DNA from: an uncultured delta proteobacterium
GTDB taxonomy: Bacteria > Desulfobacterota > Desulfovibrionia > Desulfovibrionales > Desulfovibrionaceae
DNA: 64,000 nt
Assembly (NCBI GenBank): GCA_900079685.1
Contig: LT599018.1
Span: 2,349,625-2,413,624 of the forward strand
Reading direction: 5' to 3'
Part shown: piece after piece, positions 7,570 to 44,715 of the stretch
Numbering within the stretch: the stretch's first letter is position 1
Layout: every line of letters starts with the position of its first letter
Notes under the pieces: generated by a model
What the model saw: only the letters and a program-made list of their open reading frames with translations
What the model was told of the DNA's origin: nothing
Databases searched by the model: none
Program-made: the position numbers and the translations under genes

Positions 7570-7600
7570 CCCGGCCGCCTGATTCTTGACGGCGGCCGGG
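7570..7600 (+). terminator. GC-rich hairpin after the M48 gene
   Basis: The 10-bp perfect arms CCCGGCCGCC/GGCGGCCGGG enclose an 11-base loop, 33 bases after the stop codon. No T tract is present, so this is a possible rather than a classical terminator. Confidence 0.4.
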
Positions 7601-31817: not shown

Positions 31818-31865
31818 GGCCCTCCGCGCGGCCGGGCCGCGCCCCGTGCCGCACGCTGCAAAAAA

Positions 31866-31891
31866 ACGGGCTGCCGTCACGGCAGCCCGTT
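31866..31891. terminator. Hairpin terminator between converging genes
   Basis: ACGGGCTGCCGT-CAC-GGCAGCCCGT forms a strong stem with an A-run on the left side. It suits termination of the minus-strand gene starting at 32347 and possibly of the plus-strand secreted protein gene. Confidence 0.75.
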
Positions 31892-31987
31892 TCATAGGCG
31901 GAACAATGGATCCGGCGGCCTCTCCTCGCGCCGGCGTGTTCCGCGCACAGTATGGTCGTCTTTCCGCCGCTCCCGGGCCGCGCGCGG

Positions 31988-32347
31988 TCACAGCCCGCCG
32001 TTGGCGTTCAGCCCCGGCAGAGGAATCATCTTTTCCGTTTCCAGCAGCTGCTGTCCGTACTCGTCCGGGTCGCCGAACCCTTCCAGCAGAAAGTCTATTT
32101 CATCCGGACTCAACAACCGCCCTTCCTCGGGGGTTTGCGCCGGTTCCTGCGCCGGGGGAACCGCGCGAACCACCGGACGGCACCCGTCTTCCAGACGTAT
32201 GGCGAGTTCACGCAGCCATTGCTCAAGCCGGGCAACCGGCACACCGAGCCGCTCCCCGGTCTCCGGCGAAACGCGGAGACTCAACAGCAGTTTTTTCACT
32301 ACGACAGGGTTGAACTCAGCATTGAGTTCGCAACGGTATGCCCTCAT
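31988..32347 (-). CDS. Small protein with FliM/FliN-like EID motif
   Basis: A 119-aa protein of unknown family. The C-terminal part contains LLSPDEIDFLLEGFGD, very like the LSQDEIDALLxG segment with which FliM binds phospho-CheY (also present at the start of some FliN proteins). The N-terminal 60 residues (VVVKKLLLSLRVSPETGERL) look like a compact helical domain. GGAGG precedes the ATG at 32347. It is divergent from flagellin. A role at the flagellar switch or in chemotaxis is an inference from the motif and the neighbour. Confidence 0.6.
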   Translation of the reverse strand: MRAYRCELNAEFNPVVVKKLLLSLRVSPETGERLGVPVARLEQWLRELAIRLEDGCRPVVRAVPPAQEPAQTPEEGRLLSPDEIDFLLEGFGDPDEYGQQLLETEKMIPLPGLNANGGL

Positions 32348-32897
32348 GGGATCCTCCCTTGCATATCCTTGTCTTTTCCCACTCCACACCGGAACTATAG
32401 CAACGGGAAGAGGGGATTACATGATAACACCGTATAATTGGCCCGGAACAGCGCGAAAGACGCGCGAAGATTCGGCGACGGGGAAAAATTATTTTTACAT
32501 TTCAGGTGGTAACGTTTTAAAAAAATATCGGTGGGTTATAATCCGTATAATGCGAGACTGTTTTACGCCGCGCGCGAAAACAATGCATACGCATCCACGC
32601 TGATATTATAAACGCCGGAATTCGCCTTGAGTGAAAACATATCATCTGAATATGAATTCGAAAAAACAATAAAACACTCCATGAATGACTGCATTTTTCT
32701 CTAAATATTTGTATGAAAAATGCCGATAATGCAGTTAGAAAGCAACAACACACGCTGCGTTATACGACAAAACAGTGTTACTGCTGCGTCGTATTTTCCG
32801 CAACGATATAGATTTACAACAAAAGTGGTCAAAAAGACTACGGCGGGACGGCGCTTTGCGAAGTAGCCGCCGGTTGCGGCGGGGAGTTGGTGAAGGC
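32348..32897. other. AT-rich intergenic and flagellin leader region
   Basis: About 550 bases of much lower GC than the flanking genes, between the divergent EID-motif gene and flagellin. It contains a sigma-28 promoter and a leader of roughly 160 bases. No other gene is recognisable. Confidence 0.6.
32702..32729 (+). promoter_or_regulatory. Sigma-28 (FliA) promoter of flagellin
   Basis: TAAA at 32702-32705 and a perfect GCCGATAA at 32722-32729, separated by 16 bases, match the flagellar sigma-28 consensus (TAAA-N15-GCCGATAA). Confidence 0.75.
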
Positions 32898-34421
32898 ATG
32901 GCTTTGGCGATAAACCACAACCTGGCGGCCATGAACGCGTCCCGCAACCTGGGCCGGTCTTACGACGCGCTGGCAACCTCGGTTCGCCGTCTTTCGTCCG
33001 GCCTGCGCGTGGGGCAGGCTTCGGACGACGCCGCCGGGCTTGCCATCCGCGAGCTGATGCGCGCGGATGTCGCTGCCCTGAACCAGGGCGTGCGCAACGC
33101 CAACGACGCCATATCCATGCTCCAGACGCACGACGGAGCCCTCCAGGTCATTGACGAAAAGCTCATCCGCCTCAAGGAGCTCGCGGAACAGGCCGCGTCC
33201 GGCACCTACAACTCGGACCAGCGCCTGATGATCGACAGCGAATTCCAGGCCATGAAGTCCGAGATCAGCCGGATAGCCACGGCCACGGACTTCAACGGCA
33301 TCAAACTGCTGTGCAACGACGTCGCGAACAAGTTCAAGATCACCACGGGAGAGGGTACGCCGGACATCCCCCCCACGCCCCCGGAAATTGTCGGGGCGAC
33401 AGGGACCATCCTCAACCCGGACGCCGTCACCACGGACGCGACCATTGCCTATACGGAGAACAACGAGTGGACAATTAACAGCCTGACCGGCGACGCGGCC
33501 TTCGCCAGGTGGACATACCCGACATTCGCCGCCGGCACCGGGGCTGAGGAGATATTTAAGGACGTAACTATGTCCTTCGGTTACAACAGGGCGACCAATA
33601 CATGGACCATGGACCAGTCCACGATAGACTCCCTCAGGGCCAGGGGAGTGACCTATTATTGGATGGATCCGAACAGAGGCCCCAGTGAAGCATACTTTGT
33701 CATACAGGCCATAGGCAAGGGACCAGGCGGCACATTAGTGACCGCCCCGCTCTTCTGGAGAGCCCCGACAGCCGCGGACGCACTTACTTCCAACATGCAT
33801 GTGTCCATGACCTTCACGGGCAGCGGTTCCTCCTCCATGACATTTACCAGCGGAACGGCCGAGTACCCGAATATCGCTTACCTGGGGAACGATTTGTGGG
33901 ACCTTGACGGCGACGGCAGCGCGGATGTCCGGACCCCGTACGTTGCCGGGGGCGGGAGCTTCTCCCTGCGCGCCGGCACGCAAGGCGGCTCCGGCGGAGC
34001 CGGAACCACGGAGTACGTCACGCGCATCCACTTCGGCACGGCCAACGACAGCGCGGAGGATTACTTCGATATCCAGGGCTGGGACTGCACGGCCGAGGGC
34101 CTCGGCATCGACGGCATCCGGGTACAGACCCAGGACAGCGCGCAACACGCCCTGGTGGAGCTGAACGGCGCCATCGTCAAAAAGGACGCGATACGCGGCT
34201 ATTTCGGGGCCATGCAGAACAGGCTGGAAAACACGGTCTCCAACCTGCAGATCCAGGCGGAGAACCTCCTGGCGGCGGAATCCCGCATCTCGGACGTTGA
34301 CGTGGCCTATGAAATGACGGCCTTCGTCCGGAACCAGATCCTGACGCAGAGCGCCGTTTCCATGCTCTCCCAGGCCAACAGCATGCCGCAGATGGCCTTG
34401 CGGCTCTTGCAGGGCGCGTAA
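32898..34421 (+). CDS. Flagellin
   Basis: The subunit of the flagellar filament, 507 aa. The conserved N-terminal coiled-coil (MALAINHNLAAMNASRNLG, then LSSGLRVGQASDDAAGLAI) and C-terminal coiled-coil (VAYEMTAFVRNQILTQSAVSMLSQANSMPQMALRLLQGA) form the D0/D1 core. The central residues from about 150 to 400 are a variable surface domain, rich in Thr, Gly and Asp, including a DLDGDGSADVRTP calcium-loop-like stretch. The ATG at 32898 has GAAGG just upstream; the upstream open frame is not flagellin. Expression from a sigma-28 promoter is predicted. Export would use the flagellar type III system. Confidence 0.95.
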   Translation: MALAINHNLAAMNASRNLGRSYDALATSVRRLSSGLRVGQASDDAAGLAIRELMRADVAALNQGVRNANDAISMLQTHDGALQVIDEKLIRLKELAEQAASGTYNSDQRLMIDSEFQAMKSEISRIATATDFNGIKLLCNDVANKFKITTGEGTPDIPPTPPEIVGATGTILNPDAVTTDATIAYTENNEWTINSLTGDAAFARWTYPTFAAGTGAEEIFKDVTMSFGYNRATNTWTMDQSTIDSLRARGVTYYWMDPNRGPSEAYFVIQAIGKGPGGTLVTAPLFWRAPTAADALTSNMHVSMTFTGSGSSSMTFTSGTAEYPNIAYLGNDLWDLDGDGSADVRTPYVAGGGSFSLRAGTQGGSGGAGTTEYVTRIHFGTANDSAEDYFDIQGWDCTAEGLGIDGIRVQTQDSAQHALVELNGAIVKKDAIRGYFGAMQNRLENTVSNLQIQAENLLAAESRISDVDVAYEMTAFVRNQILTQSAVSMLSQANSMPQMALRLLQGA

Positions 34422-34430
34422 CGCCCTTTT
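34412..34430 (+). terminator. Short terminator overlapping the flagellin stop
   Basis: GGGCG-CGTAA-CGCCC followed by TTTT spans the stop codon of flagellin. The stem is only 5 bp, so its efficiency is uncertain. Confidence 0.4.
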
Positions 34431-34439
34431 CGCGGGCGC

Positions 34440-34769
34440 TCAGTCCACGATGAAGAGCGTCGCGCCGGTCGGCGTGCTGGAGCGGTGCGGCTCGGCGTTG
34501 TCCGCCACCTGATAGCTGACGCCGGGGGTCAGCACGAAGCGGCGGCCGTCTTCCAGCTCGGTGTGCAGTTCCCCTTTGAGACACAGGAGAATATGGCCTT
34601 TGCTGCACCAGTGGTCGGCCAGGTAGCCGGGCGTGTATTCGACCATGCGGACGCGGATATCGCCGAACTGCCGGGTGCGCCACAGCGCCTTGCCTGTCTC
34701 GCCGGGATGCTCGGTTACCGCCACCTGCTCCCAGTCCGTCGTGCCAAAGGGGATGTCGCGCATGTCCAT
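34440..34769 (-). CDS. Cupin-fold protein of the DHCW-motif type
   Basis: A 109-aa single-domain cupin. The motif ADHWCSKGHILLCLKGEL corresponds to the metal-binding first cupin box, and TPGVSYQVADNAEPHRSS to the second. Proteins of this kind are annotated as DHCW-motif cupins without a known function. The ATG at 34769 has AAGGAG upstream. It converges on flagellin with only 18 bases between stops. Confidence 0.8.
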   Translation of the reverse strand: MDMRDIPFGTTDWEQVAVTEHPGETGKALWRTRQFGDIRVRMVEYTPGYLADHWCSKGHILLCLKGELHTELEDGRRFVLTPGVSYQVADNAEPHRSSTPTGATLFIVD

Positions 34770-35013
34770 GATCCGGCTCCTTGTTGTAGCGTTTCCAAAG
34801 GGTGGTTTGTCCTCTTTCTGTACCGTCTTTTCCTTTACGGAACAAGACGGAAGCCCCGGCGGAACAGGGCGAGCGCATCTTAATTCCGTTGTGCCGCAAT
34901 AATACAGCATTTTGCCATGCCTCGTTCAGCGAACTTTTTTGGCGACTGCCGCGGCAAAGCAGCGGTAGCAAAGGAAATTAAATGCGCTCGCCCTGGCGAA
35001 ACGAATACGGTTC

Positions 35014-35042
35014 TTGACATATCTTTTTTCTCAACTGATAAT
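35014..35042 (+). promoter_or_regulatory. Strong sigma-70 promoter
   Basis: A perfect TTGACA at 35014-35019, a 17-base spacer and GATAAT at 35037-35042. It lies 30 bases before the start of the following ORF. Confidence 0.75.
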
Positions 35043-35072
35043 ACTAATTAATAGCTCACTTTTGAGGCCCGT

Positions 35073-35531
35073 ATGTCCCAACGAAAGATCGTATATCTCT
35101 CGCGCCTGCGTACCTGCCTACGGTTGCTGACTCCGTTTTTGTATTCTTGTCTGATTCTTTCGTTGACTTGGTATGAATCCAGTCCCAATCTGTCCACGAG
35201 CATCACGGCCACTCCAACCGCTGTTGCTAAACATCTCGATGTTCATGCCGGGTTTGCGGTAAGCCAAGGGAAGACATCACGTCATCTGCCCTCTTTGCTG
35301 GCCCCGGTCACCAAGCTGCCGTCGAGCGCGAGACTGCGCCCCGAAAACCGGGACAACGGGAACGAGCCCCCGCTCTTCCAGCCCTACTGGGCCATTGCCA
35401 GTGATACTCCTTACCGTTCTTCTCGCCGCATTGATCCTATCGCTTGGGAGAGCAGAACACCCTCCTTCCTGTTGCCTTCCGCCTATGGACTTGTTCCCTT
35501 TGCCATCCCCCCTCCGGTCTGCCTTGTGTAA
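35073..35531 (+). CDS. Hypothetical protein with N-terminal hydrophobic segment
   Basis: A 152-aa ORF that I do not recognise. It is supported by a near-consensus promoter and a GAGG ribosome site rather than by similarity. Residues 12-32 (CLRLLTPFLYSCLILSLTW) could be a signal or membrane anchor; the rest is Ser/Pro-rich and ends in AIPPPVCLV. The GC content is lower than in the backbone genes. Its 3' end overlaps a weaker ORF on the minus strand. Confidence 0.5.
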   Translation: MSQRKIVYLSRLRTCLRLLTPFLYSCLILSLTWYESSPNLSTSITATPTAVAKHLDVHAGFAVSQGKTSRHLPSLLAPVTKLPSSARLRPENRDNGNEPPLFQPYWAIASDTPYRSSRRIDPIAWESRTPSFLLPSAYGLVPFAIPPPVCLV

Positions 35532-35722
35532 GGCAGATTAGCCGCTGAACAAGCGGTGTCTGCTATCTTGGCGGCATCTTCTTCCGCCTGCCAAGATTTC
35601 GCCACAGAAGAATTACTGTACACGAGTTCGTGAATGCTTTCGCGCATTTGCGGTCTTGATACATATATTCCTCTGCCTACTGCATTGCTTGCGATAAAAA
35701 TCCGTTCACACTTTTTATACAT
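35483..35722 (-). CDS. Doubtful small ORF
   Basis: A 79-aa frame (starts MYKKCERIF, ends MAKGTSP) antisense to the end of the preceding ORF over 49 bases. The composition is protein-like and an AAAGG lies 4 bases before the ATG, closer than ideal. No family is recognised. It could be real or chance. Confidence 0.25.
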   Translation of the reverse strand: MYKKCERIFIASNAVGRGIYVSRPQMRESIHELVYSNSSVAKSWQAEEDAAKIADTACSAANLPYTRQTGGGMAKGTSP

Positions 35723-35832
35723 ATACCTTTAAAGAAAGGATAAAAATTCCATGAGCGATAAAACAAAGTTGAATAGTCCTTGAACAGGGAGAATCCATAC
35801 TATGGAGCGGAGTCCCGCAATCGTATAGCCTT

Positions 35833-36336
35833 TTGGGTGAAAGTCACAAAAAATCGACCATCACGTCTCTATGCTGGGCTTTGGCGTGGGGAATTATTTT
35901 AGTGGGAGGATACTATGCGTTAACGGTCTCACAAGGCACTGAAATACAAAAAGGAGTTATGGTTTTTTGTGTAGCTGTTCCTCTGTTCGTTCTCTGGATG
36001 CCCGTGTCTGACAAAAATAAAGTAAAAAAGCTTTCGTACGCCGTGACGGACAAAAGAGCTATTGTCCTTTCCGACAAGCCCATATCCGTGCGTATTGCCG
36101 ACATTGATGCTATACGCACCGATAATGCCGACGACGGCAATTGCCACATCAGGGTGGGCTCCCCCGCTTTTAAGGCACCTTCAAAAAAGCTGCCTGTTTT
36201 GGCTTGGCGTGGTGAATCCTGCGACCAAGGCGACGATAAAAAGTACACGGGGTTAGCCTTTTTTAACGTGAACGCCGAGGATGAGAAAATCATACGCAAT
36301 CTGCTGACTCCAGTGTCTCCACTCGCAAAAGCATAA
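35833..36336 (+). CDS. PH-like membrane protein, N terminus uncertain
   Basis: A 167-aa frame with a hydrophobic hairpin (two segments, about residues 10-27 and 40-58) followed by a soluble domain KKLSYAVTDKRAIVLSDKPISVRIADIDAI, which resembles the bacterial PH-like domain (YdbS type). No ATG is available at the N terminus: the frame opens at a TTG (35833) with no good ribosome site. Just upstream are two aborted starts with good ribosome sites (ATG 35751, ending after 10 codons, and ATG 35802, ending after 8). The gene may therefore have lost its 5' end through frameshifts. Confidence 0.5.
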   Translation: MGESHKKSTITSLCWALAWGIILVGGYYALTVSQGTEIQKGVMVFCVAVPLFVLWMPVSDKNKVKKLSYAVTDKRAIVLSDKPISVRIADIDAIRTDNADDGNCHIRVGSPAFKAPSKKLPVLAWRGESCDQGDDKKYTGLAFFNVNAEDEKIIRNLLTPVSPLAKA

Positions 36337-36476
36337 GTATTCCGTAGTCCGTTCAGGGCGCAGGAAGCGAAAGCCGCTACGTGCGCCCTGGCGGATACTC
36401 TTTTTCGATAGGGGATTGCATGGACCTTGGGAGAAGGCGCCGGATTGGTTAAAGGAAGACCCCGGAGGCCGATCAC

Positions 36477-36514
36477 AAAAAAAACGAACTGCCGCAATGG
36501 CAATTCGTTTTTTT
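36477..36514. terminator. Bidirectional hairpin terminator before the attachment site
   Basis: An A8 run, a stem built on ACGAA...TGCC/GGCA...TTCGT and a T7 run form a classical two-way terminator immediately outside the left att copy. Confidence 0.75.
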
Positions 36515-36516
36515 AA

Positions 36517-36530
36517 TGGCGGAGCGGAAG
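36517..36530. repeat. Attachment site copy (attR-like) of the tRNA-Asp element
   Basis: TGGCGGAGCGGAAG is identical to the last 14 bases of the tRNA-Asp gene at 44150-44163 (same orientation). It marks the far boundary of the integrated element. Confidence 0.75.
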
Positions 36531-36592
36531 TACGCAAAATTGAGCCTGAACTATGCGTAATCAAATAGTATTTTCAATTACGAAAACCATTA

Positions 36593-36613
36593 TACCCTGA
36601 ATTTTACCCGATT
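36593..36613. repeat. Subterminal 21-bp direct repeat (left)
   Basis: TACCCTGAATTTTACCCGATT matches 44017-44037 at 20 of 21 positions, in the same orientation. It is a candidate integrase arm-type binding site. Confidence 0.6.
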
Positions 36614-36616
36614 GAA

Positions 36617-36790
36617 TCAACCCGTGGAGCGGTTTTGGCCTTCGCGGGATTCTTCTCCGGCTCCCGTTTCGGACGCCGGTTCGATCCCCTGCACATCACG
36701 CACGACCAGAGGGGTGCCTGTGCGCTCGGCAAGTTCACGAGCATCCTTTTGTCCAATGGGGGATTTTAACTGTTCCCTTGCTGTGCGGGT
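36617..36790 (-). pseudogene. C-terminal remnant of an unidentified protein
   Basis: A 57-codon frame with no start codon, ending at TGA 36619-36617. It reads as natural protein (QLKSPIGQKDARELAERTGTP then LVVRDVQGIEPASETG), unlike chance sequence. A stop codon lies just upstream at 36793-36791, and it overlaps the end of the lipoprotein gene. I take it to be the tail of a gene lost at the element boundary. Confidence 0.4.
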
Positions 36791-37224
36791 TTACTTTTTT
36801 TCAGCAATTCTTCAGCGTCCTGCGGTGATATCTCAACAAGACGTATCCAAGCTACTCTTGGAAAATCGGAATTGAACGTTAAATATAGGTAACGCTTATC
36901 TCCTGGCTGCAAGGTCAGTTGCACAAAGCTATCTTTACGCTGCCCAAAAGCGCCCCCGGTCTCAAAAGCGCCACTGACAAGACAGTCGCCTGCTTTTACT
37001 CGAAATGATACATATGCACCATTTTCCAAAGCAAAAACTTCTTGTCTGTTAATGCTGACAACTGACGCCCCACCGCTGCCATAAAATGAATTTTCTCGAA
37101 TGACAACAATTTCTGCGGCTTCGAAGTCATTGACGGGCGGCAGGGACATTAGCGGTCCGTGGTAACCGCACCCCGTCAATCCCAAACAGGCCATCGTCGC
37201 CAGCACCAGTAAAGCTCTTCTCAT
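36766..37224 (-). CDS. Small lipoprotein (DUF2846-like)
   Basis: A 152-aa lipoprotein: the leader MRRALLVLATMACLGLTGC ends in the lipobox LTGC with the cysteine at residue 19. The mature part is a beta-rich domain (IVVIRENSFYGSGGASVVSINRQ, then LQPGDKRYLYLTF) like the small DUF2846-type lipoproteins often carried by plasmids and phages. It ends in a charged tail. AGAGG lies before the ATG. The role is unknown. Confidence 0.75.
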   Translation of the reverse strand: MRRALLVLATMACLGLTGCGYHGPLMSLPPVNDFEAAEIVVIRENSFYGSGGASVVSINRQEVFALENGAYVSFRVKAGDCLVSGAFETGGAFGQRKDSFVQLTLQPGDKRYLYLTFNSDFPRVAWIRLVEISPQDAEELLKKSKPAQQGNS

Positions 37225-37272
37225 AATCGACCTCTACGTGTTCAATTTGGGTAAATGGAAGTAAAGACGCAT

Positions 37273-37608
37273 TCACCTGCGGTAAGGTTCAAATGGTTTG
37301 TCTTCGCACCCGTAGACATAGTCCTTTTTATTATAGCGGCCACTGTCACACCTAATAGATTTGTATCCGCCGGTTTCTGGGTCCAACCACCTTGCATAAA
37401 CATAATCCCTGTGTTTTAGCTGCCCACCGTCTATCCAGGGAACACTCCCCATGTCCCCAAGCTCAGTTTTTGTTCCAGCCGGGAGGTTGTATTTCTCAAC
37501 AATAGATGATCGGAGATTGCTTTGCTTGTTCCCTTCCGAATTATTGCATTTACTGAGAAGTCCGCCAAGAATCACTATGGAAAATATTATAGTTAGTATT
37601 CTCCCCAT
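37273..37608 (-). CDS. Hypothetical membrane-anchored or secreted small protein
   Basis: A 111-aa protein with one N-terminal hydrophobic segment (ILTIIFSIVILGGLLSKC); the cysteine at residue 21 follows LLSK, not a standard lipobox. The rest is polar with four tyrosine-rich strands and two more cysteines (IRCDSGRY, YGCEDKP). GGGAGC precedes the ATG. It is 48 bases upstream of the lipoprotein gene on the same strand, so the two are likely co-transcribed. No family is recognised. Confidence 0.6.
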   Translation of the reverse strand: MGRILTIIFSIVILGGLLSKCNNSEGNKQSNLRSSIVEKYNLPAGTKTELGDMGSVPWIDGGQLKHRDYVYARWLDPETGGYKSIRCDSGRYNKKDYVYGCEDKPFEPYRR

Positions 37609-37790
37609 TTTTCAGCTCCCGTAGTGGTTTGCCCAACGGTGTTTATGGGTAACGCCTTGGGTGTCCTATTTTTACCCGCTCATCAGGCAAAATCAACCCA
37701 TATAGTACGTACTTTTAATAAATATTGACTCATATGGTTTTATATCATGTTCTTGAGGATTCGATATGTTAGTCAATGGAGGCATGCTCT

Positions 37791-38117
37791 ATGGCTAACG
37801 AAATCAAAGACTTTTTGGGGAAACAGGTAATTGCGCGGCGCACGAAGGCAAAGCTATCTCAAGCGGCGCTGTCCAAGCGAACGGGCCTTTCCATTGCCCG
37901 CATCAGCGAAATCGAGCGTGCGGTTGCCAACCCCACTCTGGAAACTTTGATGGTTCTGGCCGATGCGCTTAACGTGTCCCTTGTTGACCTGCTTGATTAC
38001 GAGGGTTCCTTGACCAGTGCAGCCAAGGTAAAGGAAAAAATCACTGATGGCCTGGAAAGGTTTGATGAAAAGCAGTTGCAGACAGTTCTGGCGCTAGTGC
38101 GGGCCATGCGTAAGTAG
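37791..38117 (+). CDS. XRE-family transcriptional regulator
   Basis: A 108-aa DNA-binding protein. The helix-turn-helix covers about residues 13-66 (RTKAKLSQAALSKRTGLS, then ISEIERAVANPTLETLMVLADAL). The C-terminal 40 residues (VKEKITDGLERFDEKQLQTVLALVRAM) likely dimerise. I chose the ATG at 37791 (GGAGG 9 bases upstream). A palindrome AGTACGTACT at 37704-37713 in the upstream region is a possible operator. It probably controls the element's genes. Confidence 0.85.
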   Translation: MANEIKDFLGKQVIARRTKAKLSQAALSKRTGLSIARISEIERAVANPTLETLMVLADALNVSLVDLLDYEGSLTSAAKVKEKITDGLERFDEKQLQTVLALVRAMRK

Positions 38118-38177
38118 TTTAAAGTCTGATCGTGTTCTTTCTGAAAGTCGGTATGCTCCGAAAAAGGAGCTTTTTTT

Positions 38178-38354
38178 ATGCCTGATGACAAGCAAGACAA
38201 CGGGATGCCCTCGGACAAGGACCCACAGGAAACAAAGAGGCGCATGGAAAAATTGGCACGGGCTATCCGCGACGAGATGGGGTCAATGACCCAGGAGGAA
38301 CTTGAACGGCTCTACGCGGCGGTTGTGCTTATGGAAATAGAAAAAGACGAGTAA
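38178..38354 (+). CDS. Small acidic hypothetical protein
   Basis: A 58-aa charged protein (starts MPDDKQDNGMPSD, ends VVLMEIEKDE) directly downstream of the XRE gene. AAGGAG precedes the ATG with good spacing. Most of it is a predicted helix (RRMEKLARAIRDEM). No family is recognised; co-expression with the regulator is likely. Confidence 0.6.
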   Translation: MPDDKQDNGMPSDKDPQETKRRMEKLARAIRDEMGSMTQEELERLYAAVVLMEIEKDE

Positions 38355-38526
38355 ATACCACCACCACAGCGCCGCTGCGGCCTTGTTCATGGGCCGTAAA
38401 CGTGGCTCTGTCGGCGGTGAAGTAAAAACATGGCCTTGCCGGTAGCGCGGGAGGAGTTTTGCAAGAGAAGGGCTTTCTGTGCCCTTTTTTGCTTTTCGGG
38501 GAACAAGGCATTGACTCAATGGCCAA

Positions 38527-38553
38527 TTACCAATAAATATTATTTATTGGTAA
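38527..38553. promoter_or_regulatory. 27-bp perfect palindrome, likely ParD operator
   Basis: TTACCAATAAATA-T-TATTTATTGGTAA is a perfect dyad ending 19 bases before the parD ATG. Ribbon-helix-helix antitoxins bind such operators to autoregulate. Confidence 0.7.
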
Positions 38554-38572
38554 ATTTGATGGGAGGCTCCCT

Positions 38573-38815
38573 ATGAAAAATACATCTGTCTCACTCGGTG
38601 AGTATTTCACTGATTTTATTGACGCACAGGTGAAGGCTGGCCGGTATGGGTCCGCGAGTGACGTTGTCCGGGCAGGTCTGCGGCTGCTGGAAGAACATGA
38701 TGCCAAGTTGAAAGCTCTGCAAAGCGCGTTGGTTGCCGGTGAGGAATCGGGGGAGCCAGCCCCGTTTGACAGCAAGGCATTTTTGACGCGTATGCGGGCT
38801 AAACATGGGCAATAA
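38573..38815 (+). CDS. parD: ParD/CopG-family antitoxin
   Basis: An 80-aa ribbon-helix-helix antitoxin. The N-terminal strand and helices ([20 protein letters not shown], then [15 protein letters not shown]) bind DNA; the C-terminal tail would block ParE. GGGAGG precedes the ATG and a perfect palindrome lies upstream. Its normal partner follows with an 11-base overlap but is truncated, so this is effectively an orphan antitoxin. Confidence 0.88.
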
Positions 38816-38954
38816 AACACATGGCTACAGGCTCTCGCCATTGGCCGAGGCCGATCTGGAAGAAATCTGGCTGTATACCTTTCGGCAATGGTCGTTGGAA
38901 CAGGCCGACGATTATTCCGGAAACATCATCACGGCCATTCCTGTGACCTCCTAG
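38805..38954 (+). pseudogene. parE: Truncated ParE toxin
   Basis: The first 45 residues (YRLSPLAEADLEEIWLYTF, then QWSLEQADDYSGNIITAI) are a clear ParE N terminus, but the frame ends after 49 aa in PVTS-stop, whereas ParE is normally about 95-100 aa. The conserved C-terminal strands with the active-site region are missing and not found downstream. A deletion or insertion after ITAI probably removed the second half. Confidence 0.8.
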
Positions 38955-39129
38955 GTAACGACATAAGTAACCATCCAAGTAGATGGGCGCTGCCCGTTAC
39001 ATCACATCTTTGCTCTTGGGCCGTGAAGCATGCTCTGTTGGTGCGAAAATAAAAAATACGACATTGCTGTGGTGCAGGGCCATTTTTTGTGAGAGAGGAA
39101 TTCTATATTTTTAGAGGTTAATCAATATA

Positions 39130-39786
39130 TTAGTCAATAAAAAGTTCACAAATCTTTCTTTCTCCTGTTGGGAGAGATGTGATAAAAAAATATGAAACAG
39201 TTTTATCTATACCGTTATGGAGTTTTATTTTTTTACATTTAATTTTGTGTTGATTTACTATTATATTTTTTTCTTCTGTCATTGGAACATATTGGTAAAA
39301 ATAAACATATGAAATTCCATTTTGCATGCGAAAATCTTTTAAAAGATTGCATTTATGTGGAATATTAAATTGCATATTGGTCACATATGACAAGTTAAGT
39401 ATATAAACAGACACTTCTAGATATTCATCGTTGGAGGGTGCGTCCATCCAGGTTATGGAAAGATCGTCTGGATTTTTGTTAAAGTTGATTAGCTCAGTTG
39501 CAGGAAAAATAATGCTAAAGATATGTATAGGATTAAAAATTTGATCTATTTCTAAGCGCCACCTGTCCATATGCCTATGCCTATTGGCTATATTTTCTCT
39601 TTTGACAACGGCGTCTGTCATTGAAAGTTGACATTGTCCAGACTCATGAAATGAAATTTTGAAATCTGACCCAAAGCCTTTAGAGAACAAATACATGTCA
39701 TTTTTATTCAGGATGACAGACCAAATATTTGATCTTTTTCCCTGGCAGTCCCCAACACCAAATTGAAATCTATCTTTCTTACTCAC
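39130..39786 (-). CDS. AT-rich cargo gene, unknown function
   Basis: A 218-aa protein encoded by strikingly AT-rich DNA compared with both the backbone and the rest of the element, so it was probably acquired separately. It begins with GTG at 39786, with AAAGG about 8 bases upstream. There is no signal or membrane segment. It is rich in Ile, Asn, Lys and aromatic residues and looks like a mixed beta-rich globular protein (SVILNKNDMYLFSKGFGSD; SVYILNLSYVTNMQF). I do not recognise a family. As the only sizeable non-housekeeping gene in the island, it could be a defence or other accessory function. Confidence 0.65.
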   Translation of the reverse strand: MSKKDRFQFGVGDCQGKRSNIWSVILNKNDMYLFSKGFGSDFKISFHESGQCQLSMTDAVVKRENIANRHRHMDRWRLEIDQIFNPIHIFSIIFPATELINFNKNPDDLSITWMDAPSNDEYLEVSVYILNLSYVTNMQFNIPHKCNLLKDFRMQNGISYVYFYQYVPMTEEKNIIVNQHKIKCKKIKLHNGIDKTVSYFFITSLPTGERKICELFID

Positions 39787-40024
39787 ATCTGCACCTTTCT
39801 GTGTATGCCTTATTCATGGAGGATAAATAAATCTAGATGTGCGTTAGTTAAGCATTGGACAGTTGACGCAATAGCATCCATATTTCCTGCTTGACGTTAC
39901 TGTCTCTCGCCTTGGAAGTCAAAAAACGCCTGGTTATGGCCGAAATTTAGAAATTGCCCGAGGCAGTCGCTGTCGGCCTTCTCGGGGGTACCCCCTTGAG
40001 TAAAAACAACCCTACCCGCCACCG

Positions 40025-40228
40025 CTATGTATCGGGCATGGAGCAGTCCACAGCAGGTCTTGAACAAAACTCTTGTCTAGACGCTCTATTCGCCATGTGC
40101 GCGAGCCTTTGCCTGTCTCCCGGTTGCGCCAGCACTGGAACCACCACCGCGTTGATCGTGCCAACCATTGAAAAAGTTATCTTGGCGGGTATCGGTACAC
40201 ATGAGCGAACGTTTGGGATTCTGCTCAT
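40025..40228 (-). CDS. Possible small membrane protein coupled to the Rep-like gene
   Basis: A 67-aa frame whose ATG directly follows the TGA of the Rep-like gene. It holds one hydrophobic stretch (ITFSMVGTINAVVVPVLA) and a basic tail. Its first residues (MSRIPN) resemble those of the Rep-like protein (MSRTPN), so part of the start region may be duplicated. No ribosome site of its own is clear. Low confidence. Confidence 0.3.
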   Translation of the reverse strand: MSRIPNVRSCVPIPAKITFSMVGTINAVVVPVLAQPGDRQRLAHMANRASRQEFCSRPAVDCSMPDT

Positions 40229-41272
40229 TCATTGAACGGGTCCGTAGGGGCAGTCGAACTCGCCGTCCCTGATGCGTTTTTTTAATCTCGCATCTTTGAA
40301 GATATCGGCAACCTTACAAGCGTCGCGCTTTTGCTCACACGCCGGATAGTCCATTGCGGCGGAAAGTTTCCGCAGCCCCATCGTCATTTTATGGAGTTCC
40401 CGCGAGGTATATTTTTTCTTGCGCTTATGGAACCGTCTTGCACTCAGCAGCCCACGAAGCTCATCAATGACAGCGGGCATGTCGAACGAGGCAAACTTCA
40501 AGAAGCGTTCAAGGGGTAGCCCTTTCAACCAGTCCGGCGATACGGAGGTGGGAATGCCCATCGGTATGCCGTTGTCCTTCAAAAATGGCTTCTCAAGCGT
40601 AACCTCAATGTGGAGGTGCCAAATTCCGTTGATCTCTTTGAGGTACATCTTGGCGTCCCAATCAGGGCGCTTGACCAAAACGTATTCGCCTTTTTTGGGC
40701 CGGAGTTGATGGAAGTATGCCGTAACCTCGCCGTTTTTGGTGCCGTCTTTGTTCTCCTGTATTTTTCCCCCTTCGGGCGGCTCAGGCCACAGCCGCGCAT
40801 AAACGCCTTGGAGAAGGGTATTGTCGGCCAAATTCAGCATAAGGGTTTTAGCTGCCCGGTACGAAGTGCAGGGAAGGTTCCAGGCGACCTCGACTTGCTT
40901 TAACTGGACATCGCTTTCAAACCAGGGCGAAATCTTATCCCGCAGCGCTGAAAGGCCAGCAAGAATTTTGTCGTCCGCATTGAAGAAAATTGACCACCAC
41001 GGCTTGTCCTCGACTTTTTTCAGGAACAGCCCGTTCAAAAATGAGTTTCCTCTGCGAGGCCCAAAGAGCTTGACGATTTCAGCATGGAGGTTTTTTCCTG
41101 TCCGCCATGAAAGCGTAATTTTATGCAGAACAGGTTCCGGCAGCAGGGGGTAAAATGGGGTGTTGGTGGGTATGGTTTGAGAACCCGTATATGCACAAGC
41201 TGGTGTATGTAGTTGTTTAGGGTATAGTACCTTATTAGCCGCTGCCCTAACTTTGTTCGGGGTTCTACTCAT
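40229..41272 (-). CDS. Replication-initiator-like protein
   Basis: A 347-aa soluble protein without a firmly recognised family. The pattern around residues 125-235 (VEVAWNLPC; VLVKRPDWDAKMYLKEING then WHLHIEVTLEKPFL) resembles the core of plasmid and filamentous-phage rolling-circle initiators, where similar strands carry ExE-type and RxExxL-like motifs. The C terminus is basic (RRFHKRKKKYTSRELHK), suiting DNA binding. GGGAGA precedes the ATG. A role in replication of the excised element is an inference; a catalytic tyrosine cannot be assigned with certainty. Confidence 0.55.
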   Translation of the reverse strand: MSRTPNKVRAAANKVLYPKQLHTPACAYTGSQTIPTNTPFYPLLPEPVLHKITLSWRTGKNLHAEIVKLFGPRRGNSFLNGLFLKKVEDKPWWSIFFNADDKILAGLSALRDKISPWFESDVQLKQVEVAWNLPCTSYRAAKTLMLNLADNTLLQGVYARLWPEPPEGGKIQENKDGTKNGEVTAYFHQLRPKKGEYVLVKRPDWDAKMYLKEINGIWHLHIEVTLEKPFLKDNGIPMGIPTSVSPDWLKGLPLERFLKFASFDMPAVIDELRGLLSARRFHKRKKKYTSRELHKMTMGLRKLSAAMDYPACEQKRDACKVADIFKDARLKKRIRDGEFDCPYGPVQ

Positions 41273-41414
41273 TCACGATCTCCCTCTGGAGAAATCATGC
41301 TGTCACCTGTGTGCAGGGGGTGGGCTTTCCCCAACCCCTACACACATGCACACAGCAATCTTTGCATTTTCTTGTTGGGACTATTTATTGGTGCTTTCTT
41401 GCCTGCGAAAAAAC

Positions 41415-41603
41415 TTAATCCCAAAATATAGCATTCCCGGATATGTAAAACCCGTCACTGATAAGTCTTTTTGCTATATCATATGTTAATGTATAGTCAG
41501 TATCATCAAGTGTGACGTACATGCATCCATCTGCTGCCATACATTCAATAAGGCTCATAATATTTTTACCCATCTCGTCTTCTTCTATCTTTTTTTCTGC
41601 CAC
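41415..41603 (-). CDS. Small acidic hypothetical protein
   Basis: A 62-aa frame. I prefer a GTG start at 41603, with GAGAGG upstream, over the TTG three codons earlier. It is acidic, with a two-cysteine stretch (ECMAADGCMYVTLDDTDYTL). No family is recognised. It lies between the Rep-like gene and the AlpA cluster. Confidence 0.45.
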   Translation of the reverse strand: MAEKKIEEDEMGKNIMSLIECMAADGCMYVTLDDTDYTLTYDIAKRLISDGFYISGNAIFWD

Positions 41604-41670
41604 TAGTCGCAACCTCTCAGCAGAGTTCCTATAATTACTCTTGAGGCTGCTAACTGTTGAAGAAAGAGAC

Positions 41671-41847
41671 CTAATTCCAGTTTTTTTGATATCGCCTATA
41701 TTTATTATTCTTTTTCATTATTTTTCCCTTTTTCGGTTGCGGTATAAAATGTACCCCGGTGTAGGGGGGTATTGAAAACGGCCTCTGACCTGCGCTGTTG
41801 CCTTCACGAGCACCAATGGGAGGAGGGCGCGGCCTCTGCTCGCTCAT
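41671..41847 (-). CDS. Small basic protein downstream of AlpA-like regulator
   Basis: A 58-aa basic protein (starts MSEQRPRPPPIG, ends KKNNKYRRYQKNWN). GAGGAGGTG gives a very strong ribosome site, and the ATG overlaps the AlpA stop by 4 bases, so translation is coupled. The composition suggests nucleic-acid binding; function unknown. Confidence 0.55.
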   Translation of the reverse strand: MSEQRPRPPPIGAREGNSAGQRPFSIPPYTGVHFIPQPKKGKIMKKNNKYRRYQKNWN

Positions 41848-42104
41848 GGCGCACCTCCTCTTCCGGTCACATGGCAAGCGTAGGCGTCCTCAACGCGCGG
41901 CATGTTGCTGATGCACCCCGCTATCTCGGCAGCGTCCCACCTCACGGCGCGCTTGCCGACCTGTATGGGCAGGGGAAGCATCCCGATGGCGGTCATGCGC
42001 TCCACGGTGGCCCGACTTAGGCCGAGCATGAGGCATACCTCTTTCTTGGTAAGGAATCGGGCGGGGAGAGATGGGGAAGGGGAACGTGTCAATTGCGTAG
42101 CCAT
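41844..42104 (-). CDS. AlpA-like excisionase/regulator
   Basis: An 86-aa MerR-type helix-turn-helix protein of the AlpA family. The core FLTKKEVCLMLGLSRATVER followed by LPLPIQVGKRAVRWDAAEI is diagnostic. AlpA proteins in P4-like islands activate the integrase or assist excision. AGGAGG precedes the ATG. It lies on the same strand as, and downstream of, the integrase. Confidence 0.88.
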   Translation of the reverse strand: MATQLTRSPSPSLPARFLTKKEVCLMLGLSRATVERMTAIGMLPLPIQVGKRAVRWDAAEIAGCISNMPRVEDAYACHVTGRGGAP

Positions 42105-42196
42105 AAAAAACCTCCTGTAATGGTTGACTACAAGAGGCTTAATATATTGCTTTTTTCAATGAGTCCGTGACGATGATCTGGCAAAAAATGTCACAA

Positions 42197-42751
42197 CTAT
42201 TTATCTTGGGGTTTGGTACACTCCCTCTTTTTTAACTGTGCTTTCATGAGCATCCTGACAGTATGCTTTAATTTCTCTTCGCGGAATTTATCAAGGGGCG
42301 TTCCGCTATCAAAAACATCATCGAACAATATTCTTTCCAGCGACAAAACATTATCATCAACACTCTTTCTTGAAATACCTATTGAATCTAGGACACGGTA
42401 AAATTTCCTCAATCCGCCTGACTGTGAAGCATACCCGTCAACAAGATAAACTTTCTCTTTCTGAAACAGCATGCTCAATGAACCGTTATATTTCTCTTTT
42501 GCAATCTGAATGCAGTTGTTAATAGATTCAATTTTTCTCTGTAATTTCGATTCCTCTTTCAATTCATGCCACCCATCATAACCAAGTGCCTTGATGAGTT
42601 TTTCGCCTTGTTCTTTTGCATTTCCAGAACTAAAGTCTTCTTTTGTCATGCGTTCTGCGATTGCGCGTAATGCTTTCCATGCGCCACTCGACAACAGGCC
42701 TCTATCGTTACATTCCAGAATCGAGCGCCACAGTTCATGGGTTGCCATCAT
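42197..42751 (-). CDS. Hypothetical protein beside the integrase
   Basis: A 184-aa mostly helical, charged cytoplasmic protein (ELKEESKLQRKIESINNCIQ; LDKFREEKLKHTVRMLMKAQ). No family is recognised. AGGAGG lies 8 bases before the ATG at 42751. It starts 19 bases after the integrase stop, so it is probably in the same transcript. Composition is moderately AT-rich compared with the backbone. Confidence 0.65.
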   Translation of the reverse strand: MMATHELWRSILECNDRGLLSSGAWKALRAIAERMTKEDFSSGNAKEQGEKLIKALGYDGWHELKEESKLQRKIESINNCIQIAKEKYNGSLSMLFQKEKVYLVDGYASQSGGLRKFYRVLDSIGISRKSVDDNVLSLERILFDDVFDSGTPLDKFREEKLKHTVRMLMKAQLKKRECTKPQDK

Positions 42752-42770
42752 TATTGAACCCTCCTGTAAG

Positions 42771-43964
42771 TTACAATAAAAAATCCGCCCAATTCTGCAT
42801 CATACCGCGCCGACCATCCAAGAATTCCGTGTGCAAATAAGCGGCTCTCACCTTGTCGAGCGGCGTGTGGGCAAGCTGACGCTCTATCCAGTCCCGGTTA
42901 AAGCCCTTCTCATTCAATATAGATGAGGCCATGCCGCGAAAGCCGTGAGCGCACATCTGGTCCGTGGTGTACCCGAGACGGCGCAGAGCGCCGGTGATGG
43001 TGGCCTCGGACATGCAACGCTCGGTCGTGCGGACTGAGGGGAAGAGGTATCGCGTATGCCCGGACAACGGCTTGAGTTGTTCCAGAACTTCCACGGTCTG
43101 CCGCGCCAGAGGGACGAGGTGCGGTTGCTTCATCTTCATTTTATCCGCCGGGATGCGCCACAGCTTGTTATCGAAATCAAATTCATTCCACTCGGCATGG
43201 CGGACTTCGCCCGGACGGCAGAACGTCAAAGCCGAGAACTTCAAGGCAAGGCATGTGAGCATACTTATTTCCGCGTAGCCTTCGATTGCCAGCATCAGCC
43301 CTTGCACCTGTCTTGGATCGGTAATTGCGGCCCGATGCTTTTGCAGGGATACCGGATTGGGGTATTGCCCTTGGAGTTGCGCGGCCCAATCCACGACACC
43401 AGCGTGTTCCCTGTCTATCGCGTACCGCAAAATCTGGGATACGATAGTCCGAATCTTTTTGAGAGTGGCGAACTTCCTTTGCGCTTGCAAGGTGTCCAAG
43501 GCCGTTTTTATGTCAGCCTTGCCTACTTCCGCAATGGCCTTGTCGCCGAACCGGGGGTAGACATGCAGTTCCAGCTTTTCTTTCGTATCGTCCCAATGGG
43601 TCTGGGACAACTCCGGTTGCCTGAAAGCCAGCCATTCCCTTGCCACGGAGCGGAAGGTAACTGATGCGGCCCGGACTTTTGTTTTCTCGGCCTTTTTGGT
43701 TGTGGTGGGATTTACACCTTGGGCAAGCTCTTTCTTAGCAGCTTGGGCCGATTCTCGCGCTTCCGCAAGGGTCATTGTGGGGTATGTGCCAAGGGTCAGC
43801 AATTGATGCTTTTCCTCAAACTTATAGGCAAGTCGAAACGCTTTCCCGCCGACCTTGGATACGGCGACATGCAACCCGCCAATGGTGCCGTCAGGGACTT
43901 TGTAGGGCTTGTCTTTGGCTTTGAGCGTTCTGAGCCTTGTGTCTGTTAGGATTTGCGTGGGCAT
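42771..43964 (-). CDS. Tyrosine integrase, P4/DUF4102 type
   Basis: A 397-aa site-specific recombinase that inserts the element at tRNA genes. The N-terminal DUF4102 arm-binding domain is present (LKAKDKPYKVPDGTIGGLHVAVS). The catalytic set is Arg in FCRPGEVRHAEW, His-x-x-Arg in CAHGFRGMASS, His in QLAHTP and the nucleophile Tyr in VRAAYLHTEF. All catalytic residues are present, so it is probably active. It is transcribed away from the tRNA-Asp gene 186 bases distant, which it uses as its attachment site. Confidence 0.96.
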   Translation of the reverse strand: MPTQILTDTRLRTLKAKDKPYKVPDGTIGGLHVAVSKVGGKAFRLAYKFEEKHQLLTLGTYPTMTLAEARESAQAAKKELAQGVNPTTTKKAEKTKVRAASVTFRSVAREWLAFRQPELSQTHWDDTKEKLELHVYPRFGDKAIAEVGKADIKTALDTLQAQRKFATLKKIRTIVSQILRYAIDREHAGVVDWAAQLQGQYPNPVSLQKHRAAITDPRQVQGLMLAIEGYAEISMLTCLALKFSALTFCRPGEVRHAEWNEFDFDNKLWRIPADKMKMKQPHLVPLARQTVEVLEQLKPLSGHTRYLFPSVRTTERCMSEATITGALRRLGYTTDQMCAHGFRGMASSILNEKGFNRDWIERQLAHTPLDKVRAAYLHTEFLDGRRGMMQNWADFLL

Positions 43965-44016
43965 CGGGTATTTTCCTCCGCAGGGTATCGGGTAAAATCG
44001 AAGTGGGGAAACGCCG

Positions 44017-44037
44017 TACCCTGATTTTTACCCGATT
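44017..44037. repeat. Subterminal 21-bp direct repeat (right)
   Basis: TACCCTGATTTTTACCCGATT, the partner of 36593-36613. A related inverted motif ATCGGGTAAAAT lies at 43987-43998, between here and the integrase start, giving a cluster of candidate arm sites. Confidence 0.6.
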
Positions 44038-44149
44038 TTAAACCTGCTTCCGAGAGGATTTCTGATCTTTTGTGACGCAAACGAAAAGGCTGAAAACCTT
44101 TGTTTCCAAGAGGTTTTCAGCCTTTAAGCTGCCTTGCGAGGCAATAAAC

Positions 44150-44226
<77 letters not shown>

Positions 44227-44380: not shown

Positions 44381-44498
44381 AAAAAGCAGCCGCAGCCCCT
44401 TTATGGGAAGAAGCCACAACCACGAGGGGCATTTCTATGGTAAAACGTGGAAAATTGCAAGAGGGAAAACGGAGATATTTGCGCCGCCCGCGCTTTTT

Positions 44499-44643
44499 GG
44501 GAAGCGCTGATTAATGAGGATTTTTGTCCTTTGCCAAGGAAGGCGAGTTCCGGGCGGAGCGAAGTGTATAAAGACATACATGAGCTTCGCACGGGACGAG
44601 CCTGACGCGGGCAAAGGGCAAAAAGACCATTAATCAGCGCTTC
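44499..44643. repeat. 145-bp imperfect palindromic element
   Basis: The ends GGAAGCGCTGATTAATG and CATTAATCAGCGCTTCC are perfect complements; inner blocks (CCTTTGCC/GGCAAAGG, GAGCGAAG/CTTCGC, TGTAT/ATACA) continue the symmetry to a centre near 44571. No ORF. It looks like a small MITE or structured repeat. Confidence 0.8.
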
Positions 44644-44715
44644 CTTTATACCATGATAATCCTCCTCTCCCCCTGCCGGTTGCCGTATTATCGGCAAAAA
44701 TACAGGAGGATACCC

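What the first reader, a model, noticed from the sequence alone, without database searches (positions are those of the whole stretch)
36517..44163. Compact integrative element in tRNA-Asp carrying a Rep-like gene
Exact 14-bp direct repeats of the tRNA-Asp 3' end, a complete P4-type integrase, AlpA and a candidate replication initiator define a 7.6-kb element with no structural or conjugation genes. A replicating, non-conjugative island suggests a phage satellite or a mobilisable plasmid-like element.
Basis: partly seen in the sequence, partly recalled or inferred. Interest (0 to 1): 0.6.

Follow-up and report, generated by a model that had tools for sequence, protein, structure and literature searches.

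The report
Small satellite-like island with rolling-circle initiator
A 7.6-kb piece of mobile DNA sits in a bacterial aspartate-tRNA gene and carries its own integrase plus a divergent protein that looks like a rolling-circle replication starter; two relatives, one with virus-shell genes but no tail gene found, suggest a little-known group of elements that live off phages.

Summary
Exact 14-bp repeats of the tRNA-Asp 3' end (36517-36530, 44150-44163) bound a low-GC element (47.6% against 61.2%) with a P4-type integrase, AlpA and a 347-aa Rep-like protein; none of its 10 scanned ORFs matched a structural or conjugation family above cut-off. A draft congener has a tRNA-Asp at the syntenic position with no element.

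The Rep-like protein has no Pfam, PHROG or NCBIfam match. A rolling-circle initiator of the Rep_trans/Phage_CRI (gpII) kind is nevertheless likely: its active-site order (E..TxY..KxYxK..[RH]xE) recurs in two relatives; a weak two-sequence AlphaFold model finds an inovirus Rep as best viral match and RepDE among the top solved folds; comparison with gpII-type Reps beats 100 of 100 shuffles. Comparison with Rep_trans profiles fails, so the subfamily is open.

The relatives are tRNA-bounded elements with P4-type integrases: one in the same genome (tRNA-Arg, 5.9 kb), one in another genus (tRNA-Ser, 12.8 kb) with terminase, portal, capsid and Mu-F-like genes but no tail gene found. Best reading: a phage-satellite lineage that excises, replicates by rolling circle and is packaged by a helper. 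Replication, packaging and helper use are inferred, not shown.

The parts
36517..36530 (+). attL: distal 14-bp copy of the tRNA-Asp 3' end
44150..44163 (+). attR: same 14 bp as the 3' end of the intact tRNA-Asp
44150..44226 (-). tRNA-Asp (gtc), the integration target
36593..36613 (+). 21-nt repeat 63 nt inside attL; candidate integrase arm site
   Evidence: family D18, 95% identical to 44017-44037; role inferred
44017..44037 (+). partner 21-nt repeat inside attR; candidate arm site
   Evidence: role inferred
36478..36514 (.). terminator-like hairpin just outside attL
   Evidence: -17.2 and -23.0 kcal/mol on the two strands of a slightly longer stretch; that it is the displaced tRNA terminator is inference
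44086..44128 (.). hairpin just inside attR, between integrase and tRNA; likely a replacement terminator
   Evidence: -31.4 and -32.0 kcal/mol on the two strands of 44080-44152; role inferred
42771..43964 (-). P4-type tyrosine integrase, 397 aa
   Evidence: 63% identical to the E2 integrase, 49% to the E3 integrase
42197..42751 (-). 184-aa protein of unknown function directly after the integrase gene
   Evidence: no family over cut-off; no phage match
41844..42104 (-). AlpA-type regulator or excisionase, 86 aa
   Evidence: PF05930 36.1 bits (cut-off 21); phrog_66
41415..41612 (-). 65-aa ORF, doubtful gene
40229..41272 (-). Rep-like protein, 347 aa: T184, Y186; K208-x-Y210-x-K212; H221-x-E223; E128
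   Evidence: residue roles by comparison with PMC4797284 (passages)
39904..40213 (-). conserved non-coding stretch after rep; candidate replication origin
   Evidence: 67% identical to the same place in E2; in the own genome only at E1 and E2; no excess fold stability
39130..39786 (-). 218-aa low-GC cargo ORF of unknown function
   Evidence: no family over cut-off; one weak phage match, E 0.005 over 45%
38573..38815 (+). ParD antitoxin
38805..38954 (+). ParE remnant, 49 aa, matching only profile positions 1-36 of 89
37776..38117 (+). Xre/RstR-like repressor, 113 aa
   Evidence: HTH_3 over cut-off; phage_RstR 42.6 bits (cut-off 80, not reached)
37273..37608 (-). 111-aa ORF shared with E2 (89% identical)
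   Evidence: no family
36766..37224 (-). DUF2846-like lipoprotein shared with E2 (94% identical)
   Evidence: (23.2 bits, under the cut-off of 34.3), phrog_890

Best explanation
E1 (36517-44163) is an integrated, non-conjugative mobile element of a small, divergent phage-satellite lineage. The P4-type integrase recombines a 14-bp core at the tRNA-Asp 3' end and AlpA probably directs excision. The Rep-like protein is a rolling-circle initiator of the Rep_trans/Phage_CRI (gpII) superfamily; it probably nicks an origin in the conserved non-coding stretch after its own gene with Y210 as nucleophile. The multimers are then packaged by a helper phage. Shown by computation: element boundaries, an unoccupied tRNA-Asp in a congener, two sister elements with the same integrase-plus-Rep pair, Rep motif order and approximate fold, conserved non-coding stretch. 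Inferred: excision, nicking, origin, helper, packaging.
For: Exact att repeats and GC contrast. Unoccupied syntenic tRNA-Asp in congener G001: 227 bp against 12,333 bp between the same two landmarks. Second element E2 in the same genome at tRNA-Arg, 31-bp exact repeats, Rep 35% and integrase 63% identical. Third element E3 in another genus at tRNA-Ser, 14-bp repeats ending at the tRNA end, Rep beside a P4-type integrase, plus terminase, portal, major capsid and Mu-F-like genes; IMG/VR holds it as a virus record. Rep: active-site order in 3 of 3 and in none of the other ORFs among 407 of 150 aa or more; long motif in 0 of 20,000 shuffles of each Rep; hhalign against 49 gpII-type Reps scores 36.95 against at most 22.25 in 100 shuffles and 14.2 reversed; two-sequence AlphaFold model, best BFVD match an Inoviridae GST REP at E 1.2e-7; RepDE at Z 6.7 and 6.4 with 166 and 168 residues aligned, the longest alignments of the 50 rows.
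Against: No Pfam, PHROG, NCBIfam or PDB sequence match for Rep. Profile comparison with 6 Rep_trans proteins scores no better than shuffles, nor with catalytic segments only. The model is poor (mean pLDDT 47, pTM 0.49), TM-scores of the Rep matches are low, the first VIA row is an unrelated protein (DcrB, Z 6.9) tied with RepDE, and Z under 8 can mean a common arrangement. The motif patterns were written after seeing both groups. E1 has no packaging gene. AlpA was not found in E2 or E3. No helper was sought or found.
Confidence: 0.6

Rival explanations
1. Integrative mobilisable element: the Rep-like protein is a MobT-like relaxase that nicks an oriT, and the circle is moved by a co-resident conjugation system.
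For: Rep_trans proteins are relaxases in many streptococcal IMEs, some without a coupling-protein gene (PMC5357655, passages). E1 and E2 carry no phage structural gene.
Against: The typical MobT architecture has an N-terminal HTH domain (PMC6499999, passages); no HTH family was found in the three Reps. No coupling-protein or relaxase family over a cut-off in E1. The same Rep sits with capsid genes in E3.
Confidence: 0.17
2. Decaying integrated island: once mobile, now fixed, with cargo genes kept and Rep unused.
For: ParE is a remnant; a related gene in G398 (L016) is broken; E2's Xre reading frame has an in-frame stop (by eye).
Against: Integrase, AlpA and Rep of E1 are open over their full length and both att copies are exact. 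E1 and E2 share 90% identical cargo DNA while their integrases are 63% identical, which points to recent exchange.
Confidence: 0.18
3. The Rep-like protein is not an initiator but an unrelated DNA-binding or structural protein with a similar strand order.
For: No database family match; low-confidence model.
Against: Active-site order, fold hits and profile score agree, and three independent elements place it next to the integrase.
Confidence: 0.15

Closest known systems
[quoted passage not shown]
   Same: Very small, integrase, AlpA, one replication gene, no capsid-remodelling gene; an extra gene directly after int; plasmid-like rolling-circle multimers were proposed for PICMI.
   Different: PICMI uses a DUF3987/DUF5906 primase and the fis site; E1 has a Rep_trans/CRI-like initiator and uses tRNA-Asp.
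cf-PICI (capsid-forming PICI), named in PMC10803314 passages
   Same: Sister element E3 carries terminase, portal and capsid genes without a recognised tail gene; 12.8 kb against an average of 14 kb.
   Different: E1 and E2 lack the capsid module; the Rep family is not one that I know from cf-PICIs (recalled, not searched gene by gene).
Rep_trans initiators (pT181 RepD, RepDE; PF02486), PMC4797284 (passages)
   Same: Order of D/E, TxY, [RK]xYxK and E; fold match to 4cwe/4cwc.
   Different: R189 replaced by K208, G180 not kept, first metal ligand D replaced by H50 in E1 (by eye); no profile match.
Phage_CRI / gpII initiators of filamentous phages
   Same: Best profile-profile score, and an inovirus Rep is the best BFVD match.
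   Different: Spacing from YxK to RxE is about 13 residues instead of about 45; no Pfam match.
P4-like satellites
   Same: P4-type integrase, AlpA, tRNA target.
   Different: No primase-helicase or capsid-size gene found among the scanned ORFs.

Membership tests
tRNA-targeted integrative element | tyrosine integrase plus exact repeats of the tRNA end at both boundaries | tested here: met
tRNA-targeted integrative element | unoccupied site in a relative | tested here: met
   congener G001 has the syntenic tRNA-Asp without the element; but 4.7 kb left of attL is missing there too, so it is not a clean two-flank empty site, and only one draft congener is held
Rep_trans (PF02486) | profile match over the curated cut-off | tested here: not met
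   profile-profile no better than shuffles
Rep_trans (PF02486) | TxYxG, RxYxK, downstream E, upstream D metal ligands | tested here: inconclusive
   order kept; G not kept, R to K, D to E at 128, D to H at 50 in E1
Rep_trans (PF02486) | crescent-shaped fold | tested here: inconclusive
   4cwe Z 6.7, 4cwc Z 6.4, 4cij Z 5.1 on a low-confidence model
Phage_CRI / gpII Reps (PF05144) | profile match | tested here: not met
   profile-profile above 100 shuffles but 35% probability
PICMI | integrase and AlpA | tested here: met
PICMI | DUF3987/DUF5906 primase and insertion at fis | tested here: not met
cf-PICI | own terminase, portal and capsid genes without tail genes | tested here: not met
   E1: none. 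E3 does have head genes and no tail hit among 11 scanned ORFs
Integrative mobilisable element | recognised relaxase and, often, a coupling protein | tested here: not met
   none over cut-off in the ORFs scanned; a divergent MobT-like role of Rep is not excluded
Phage satellite (functional sense) | induction and packaging by a helper phage | not testable with these tools
   needs a culture experiment

The most novel reading that the evidence does not exclude
E1, E2 and E3 define an unrecognised satellite family built on one core, a P4-type integrase plus a third branch of non-HUH rolling-circle initiators that lies between Rep_trans and gpII, with a conserved origin beside rep. The family spans minimal islands that must borrow a whole virion and forms with their own capsid that borrow only tails, so gain or loss of a capsid module would convert one satellite strategy into the other.
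Probability: 0.3. Interest if true: 0.65.

Novelty: new variant of a known kind. Interest (0 to 1): 0.5.

Why it matters
If right, satellites replicate with a filamentous-phage or pT181-like nicking enzyme rather than only with primases, outside the hosts where satellites have mostly been described. One initiator family would link minimal and capsid-forming satellites, which makes it testable whether these strategies interconvert by module exchange. The protein family is also invisible to Pfam, PHROGs and NCBIfam, so such elements would be missed by profile-based satellite finders.

Tried and rejected
A conserved structured RNA after rep: not supported. Fold z-scores were 0.18, -0.24 and 1.06, Rfam gave only tRNAs and one sub-threshold patAB-leader match at 36473-36515. 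A two-sequence consensus fold had 12 of 74 pairs changed on both sides, without a control.

Borrowed packaging site: the non-coding stretch has no further copy in the own genome, so no in-genome helper shares it; two 20-25-nt matches in G109 and G009 (E 0.006, 0.007) look like chance.

More relatives of Rep: none in viral contigs (one search gave only the E3 record), genome contigs, plasmids or phages. 2 of 348 genomes of the class matched with a two-row profile. With the E3 Rep, 5 of 348 matched at E 0.01; three of these (G174, G216, G334; E 0.002-0.006) are weak and were not followed up. 2 of 395 matched in a phylum sample, of which G398 is a broken gene. 2 of 257 matched in the class of G398, of which G837 looks like chance by its ORF. 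None of 1,780 ORFs of 100 aa or more in 23 integrase-related loci and 6 other P4-type integrase loci of the own genome matched the Rep profile at E 1 or the core motif.

Single-sequence AlphaFold of Rep was useless (mean pLDDT 36.8). Single-sequence profile comparisons were weak, and E2 alone aligned to another region. Rep_trans against gpII-type Reps, as a yardstick between known families, itself scored only 26.5.
Full report
What is there. The window carries two identical tRNA-Asp genes in tandem on the minus strand. The 14 bases at their 3' end recur once more, exactly, at 36517-36530; about 0.0001 chance copies are expected per 10 kb of one strand. The stretch between 36517 and 44163 has 47.6% GC against 61.2% for the rest of the window. 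Its genes, read from the tRNA side, are a P4-type integrase, a 184-aa unknown, AlpA, a doubtful 65-aa ORF, the 347-aa Rep-like protein, a non-coding stretch, a 218-aa unknown, ParD with a ParE remnant, an Xre repressor and two small ORFs, one a DUF2846-like lipoprotein. A 21-nt repeat lies inside each end, as integrase arm sites would. Hairpins lie just outside attL and just inside attR; they are easily read as a displaced and a replacement tRNA terminator, which is inference.

Is the site empty elsewhere? The one congener held, G001 (74% complete, 460 contigs), has on one contig the order of window 30-31.8 kb (metallopeptidase-like ORF, tRNA-Leu, small ORF) followed after 227 bp by a tRNA-Asp with no element; in the window the same distance is 12,333 bp. 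The element accounts for 7.6 kb of this. The 4.7 kb between 31818 and 36516, with a flagellin-like gene, is also missing there, so this is an unoccupied tRNA, not a clean two-flank empty site.

Sister elements. The own genome holds a second Rep (35% identical) beside a 63% identical integrase. This element, E2, lies at tRNA-Arg with 31-bp exact repeats at L003 9696-9726 and 15634-15664. E1 and E2 share about 840 bp of 90% identical cargo DNA at the attL end. A third Rep, 468 aa, lies beside a P4-type integrase in G019, another genus of the same family. This element, E3, is bounded by 14-bp repeats of the tRNA-Ser end (7579-7592 and 20366-20379 in the numbering; 12.8 kb) and carries a terminase large subunit, an SPP1-type portal, a major capsid protein, a weak Mu-F match and a serine recombinase. 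No tail family was hit among the 11 ORFs scanned; small ORFs were not scanned. IMG/VR holds 12.46 kb of it as a virus record. AlpA of E1 had no match in E2 or E3. Six other P4-type integrase loci of the own genome, and 23 loci with related integrases from named genomes, carry no such Rep.

What is Rep? Family scans are blank. Reading PMC4797284 (passages), the Rep_trans active site is D46, D142, T176-x-Y178-x-G180, R189-x-Y191-x-K193 and E214. The three Reps show E128.., T184-x-Y186, K208-x-Y210-x-K212 and E223 (E1 numbers) in the same order. The core pattern occurs in 3 of 3 Reps, 5 of 6 Rep_trans proteins and 0 of 49 gpII-type Reps; in 1, 9 and 6 of 20,000 shuffles of E1, E2 and E3; and in no other of 407 ORFs of 150 aa or more. 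With the upstream acidic motif added it occurs in 3 of 3, 4 of 6 and 0 of 49, and in 0 of 20,000 shuffles of each Rep; a looser form occurs in 15 of 49 gpII-type Reps but also in 23, 110 and 11 of 20,000 shuffles. These patterns were written after seeing both groups, so the counts overstate their force.

Profile comparison of the three Reps with 49 gpII-type Reps gives score 36.95, P 0.0004, probability 35%; 100 column shuffles reach at most 22.25 and the reversed profile 14.2; with only 9 gpII-type Reps the score was 35.2 against at most 19.5 in 30 shuffles. Against six Rep_trans proteins the score is 15.3, below the best shuffles (23.9), and catalytic segments alone do no better.

Structure. 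With the E3 protein as the only other row, AlphaFold gives mean pLDDT 47.1 and pTM 0.49, with residues 45-230 mostly at 50-70. Foldseek against BFVD ranks an Inoviridae 'GST REP' first (E 1.2e-7, probability 1.00, but TM 0.26 and 0.22); two of the five further matches under 0.001 are an endornavirus polyprotein and an iridovirus protein, which are likely chance. Against PDB no match passes 0.001; the first is TATA-binding protein (E 0.005), which PMC4797284 names as the nearest fold to RepDE. In the VIA second look RepDE entries rank 2 and 3 (Z 6.7 and 6.4; 166 and 168 residues) and the Geobacillus Rep 24 (Z 5.1; 151 residues); these are the three longest alignments of the 50 rows, but rank 1 is an unrelated protein (DcrB, Z 6.9, 93 residues) and Z under 8 can be a common arrangement. 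Together I hold a Rep_trans/CRI-type initiator at about 80%, and its exact subfamily as open.

Origin. Between E1 and E2 the rep coding DNA gives no nucleotide match at E 0.001, while the 310 nt after it are 67% identical (E 2e-28) with frame-breaking gaps. In 99 genomes this stretch matches only at E1 and E2, apart from two short chance-like matches. An initiator with a conserved non-coding neighbour is what an origin would look like; it shows no excess RNA stability. A packaging or regulatory site is not excluded.

How it works. Integrase and AlpA would excise the circle; Rep would nick at the origin and drive rolling-circle synthesis; a helper phage would package the multimers. This is the PICMI cycle (PMC10803314, passages) with a different replication gene. 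The capsid genes of E3 support the phage side over conjugation. The MobT-like IME reading stays open because Rep_trans relaxases without a coupling protein exist (PMC5357655, passages); the HTH architecture typical of MobT proteins (PMC6499999, passages) was not seen in the three Reps.

Novelty. Three paper searches joined satellites with AlpA and PICI, with rolling-circle or Rep_trans terms, and cf-PICI with Desulfovibrio; their listings show no paper on such a Rep in satellites, but only listings, abstract starts and passages of four papers were seen. I rate it a new variant of a known kind. The host species is named by no call.

Noticed in passing
window 44494-44645: Dispersed repeat: this stretch matches many places in the own genome and the congener (part of 31 and 42 matches, lower bounds as only 40 candidates were scored; some of these are tRNA matches); it also matches its own reverse strand at 73%, though repeat finder listed no inverted pair.
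   Followed up: partly
window 31818-36516: A further 4.7 kb with patchy low GC, including a flagellin-like ORF (32775-34421), is absent at the syntenic place in the congener; possibly an older neighbouring insertion.
   Followed up: no
L003 9616-9726 and 15550-15664: The ends of E2 share an imperfect repeat of about 110 nt that includes a truncated tRNA-Arg 5' half and a hairpin beside the 31-bp exact repeat (by eye); attL looks like the right end of another, lost element.
   Followed up: partly
window 38383-38468, 39009-39096; L003 11617-11705: A repeat of about 90 nt occurs twice in E1 (66% identical) and once in E2 (76%); function unknown.
   Followed up: partly
window 38573-38954: Complete ParD antitoxin followed by a 49-aa ParE remnant.
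   Followed up: yes
own genome: Eight further P4-type integrase matches, one weak, lie in the own genome; five of the six fetched loci that are not E2 hold a tRNA gene within the fetched stretch.
   Followed up: partly
L003 8739-9113: Fic/Doc family gene just outside E2.
   Followed up: no
L016 (G398): A broken relative of Rep beside a transposase-like ORF in a distant family of the phylum.
   Followed up: partly
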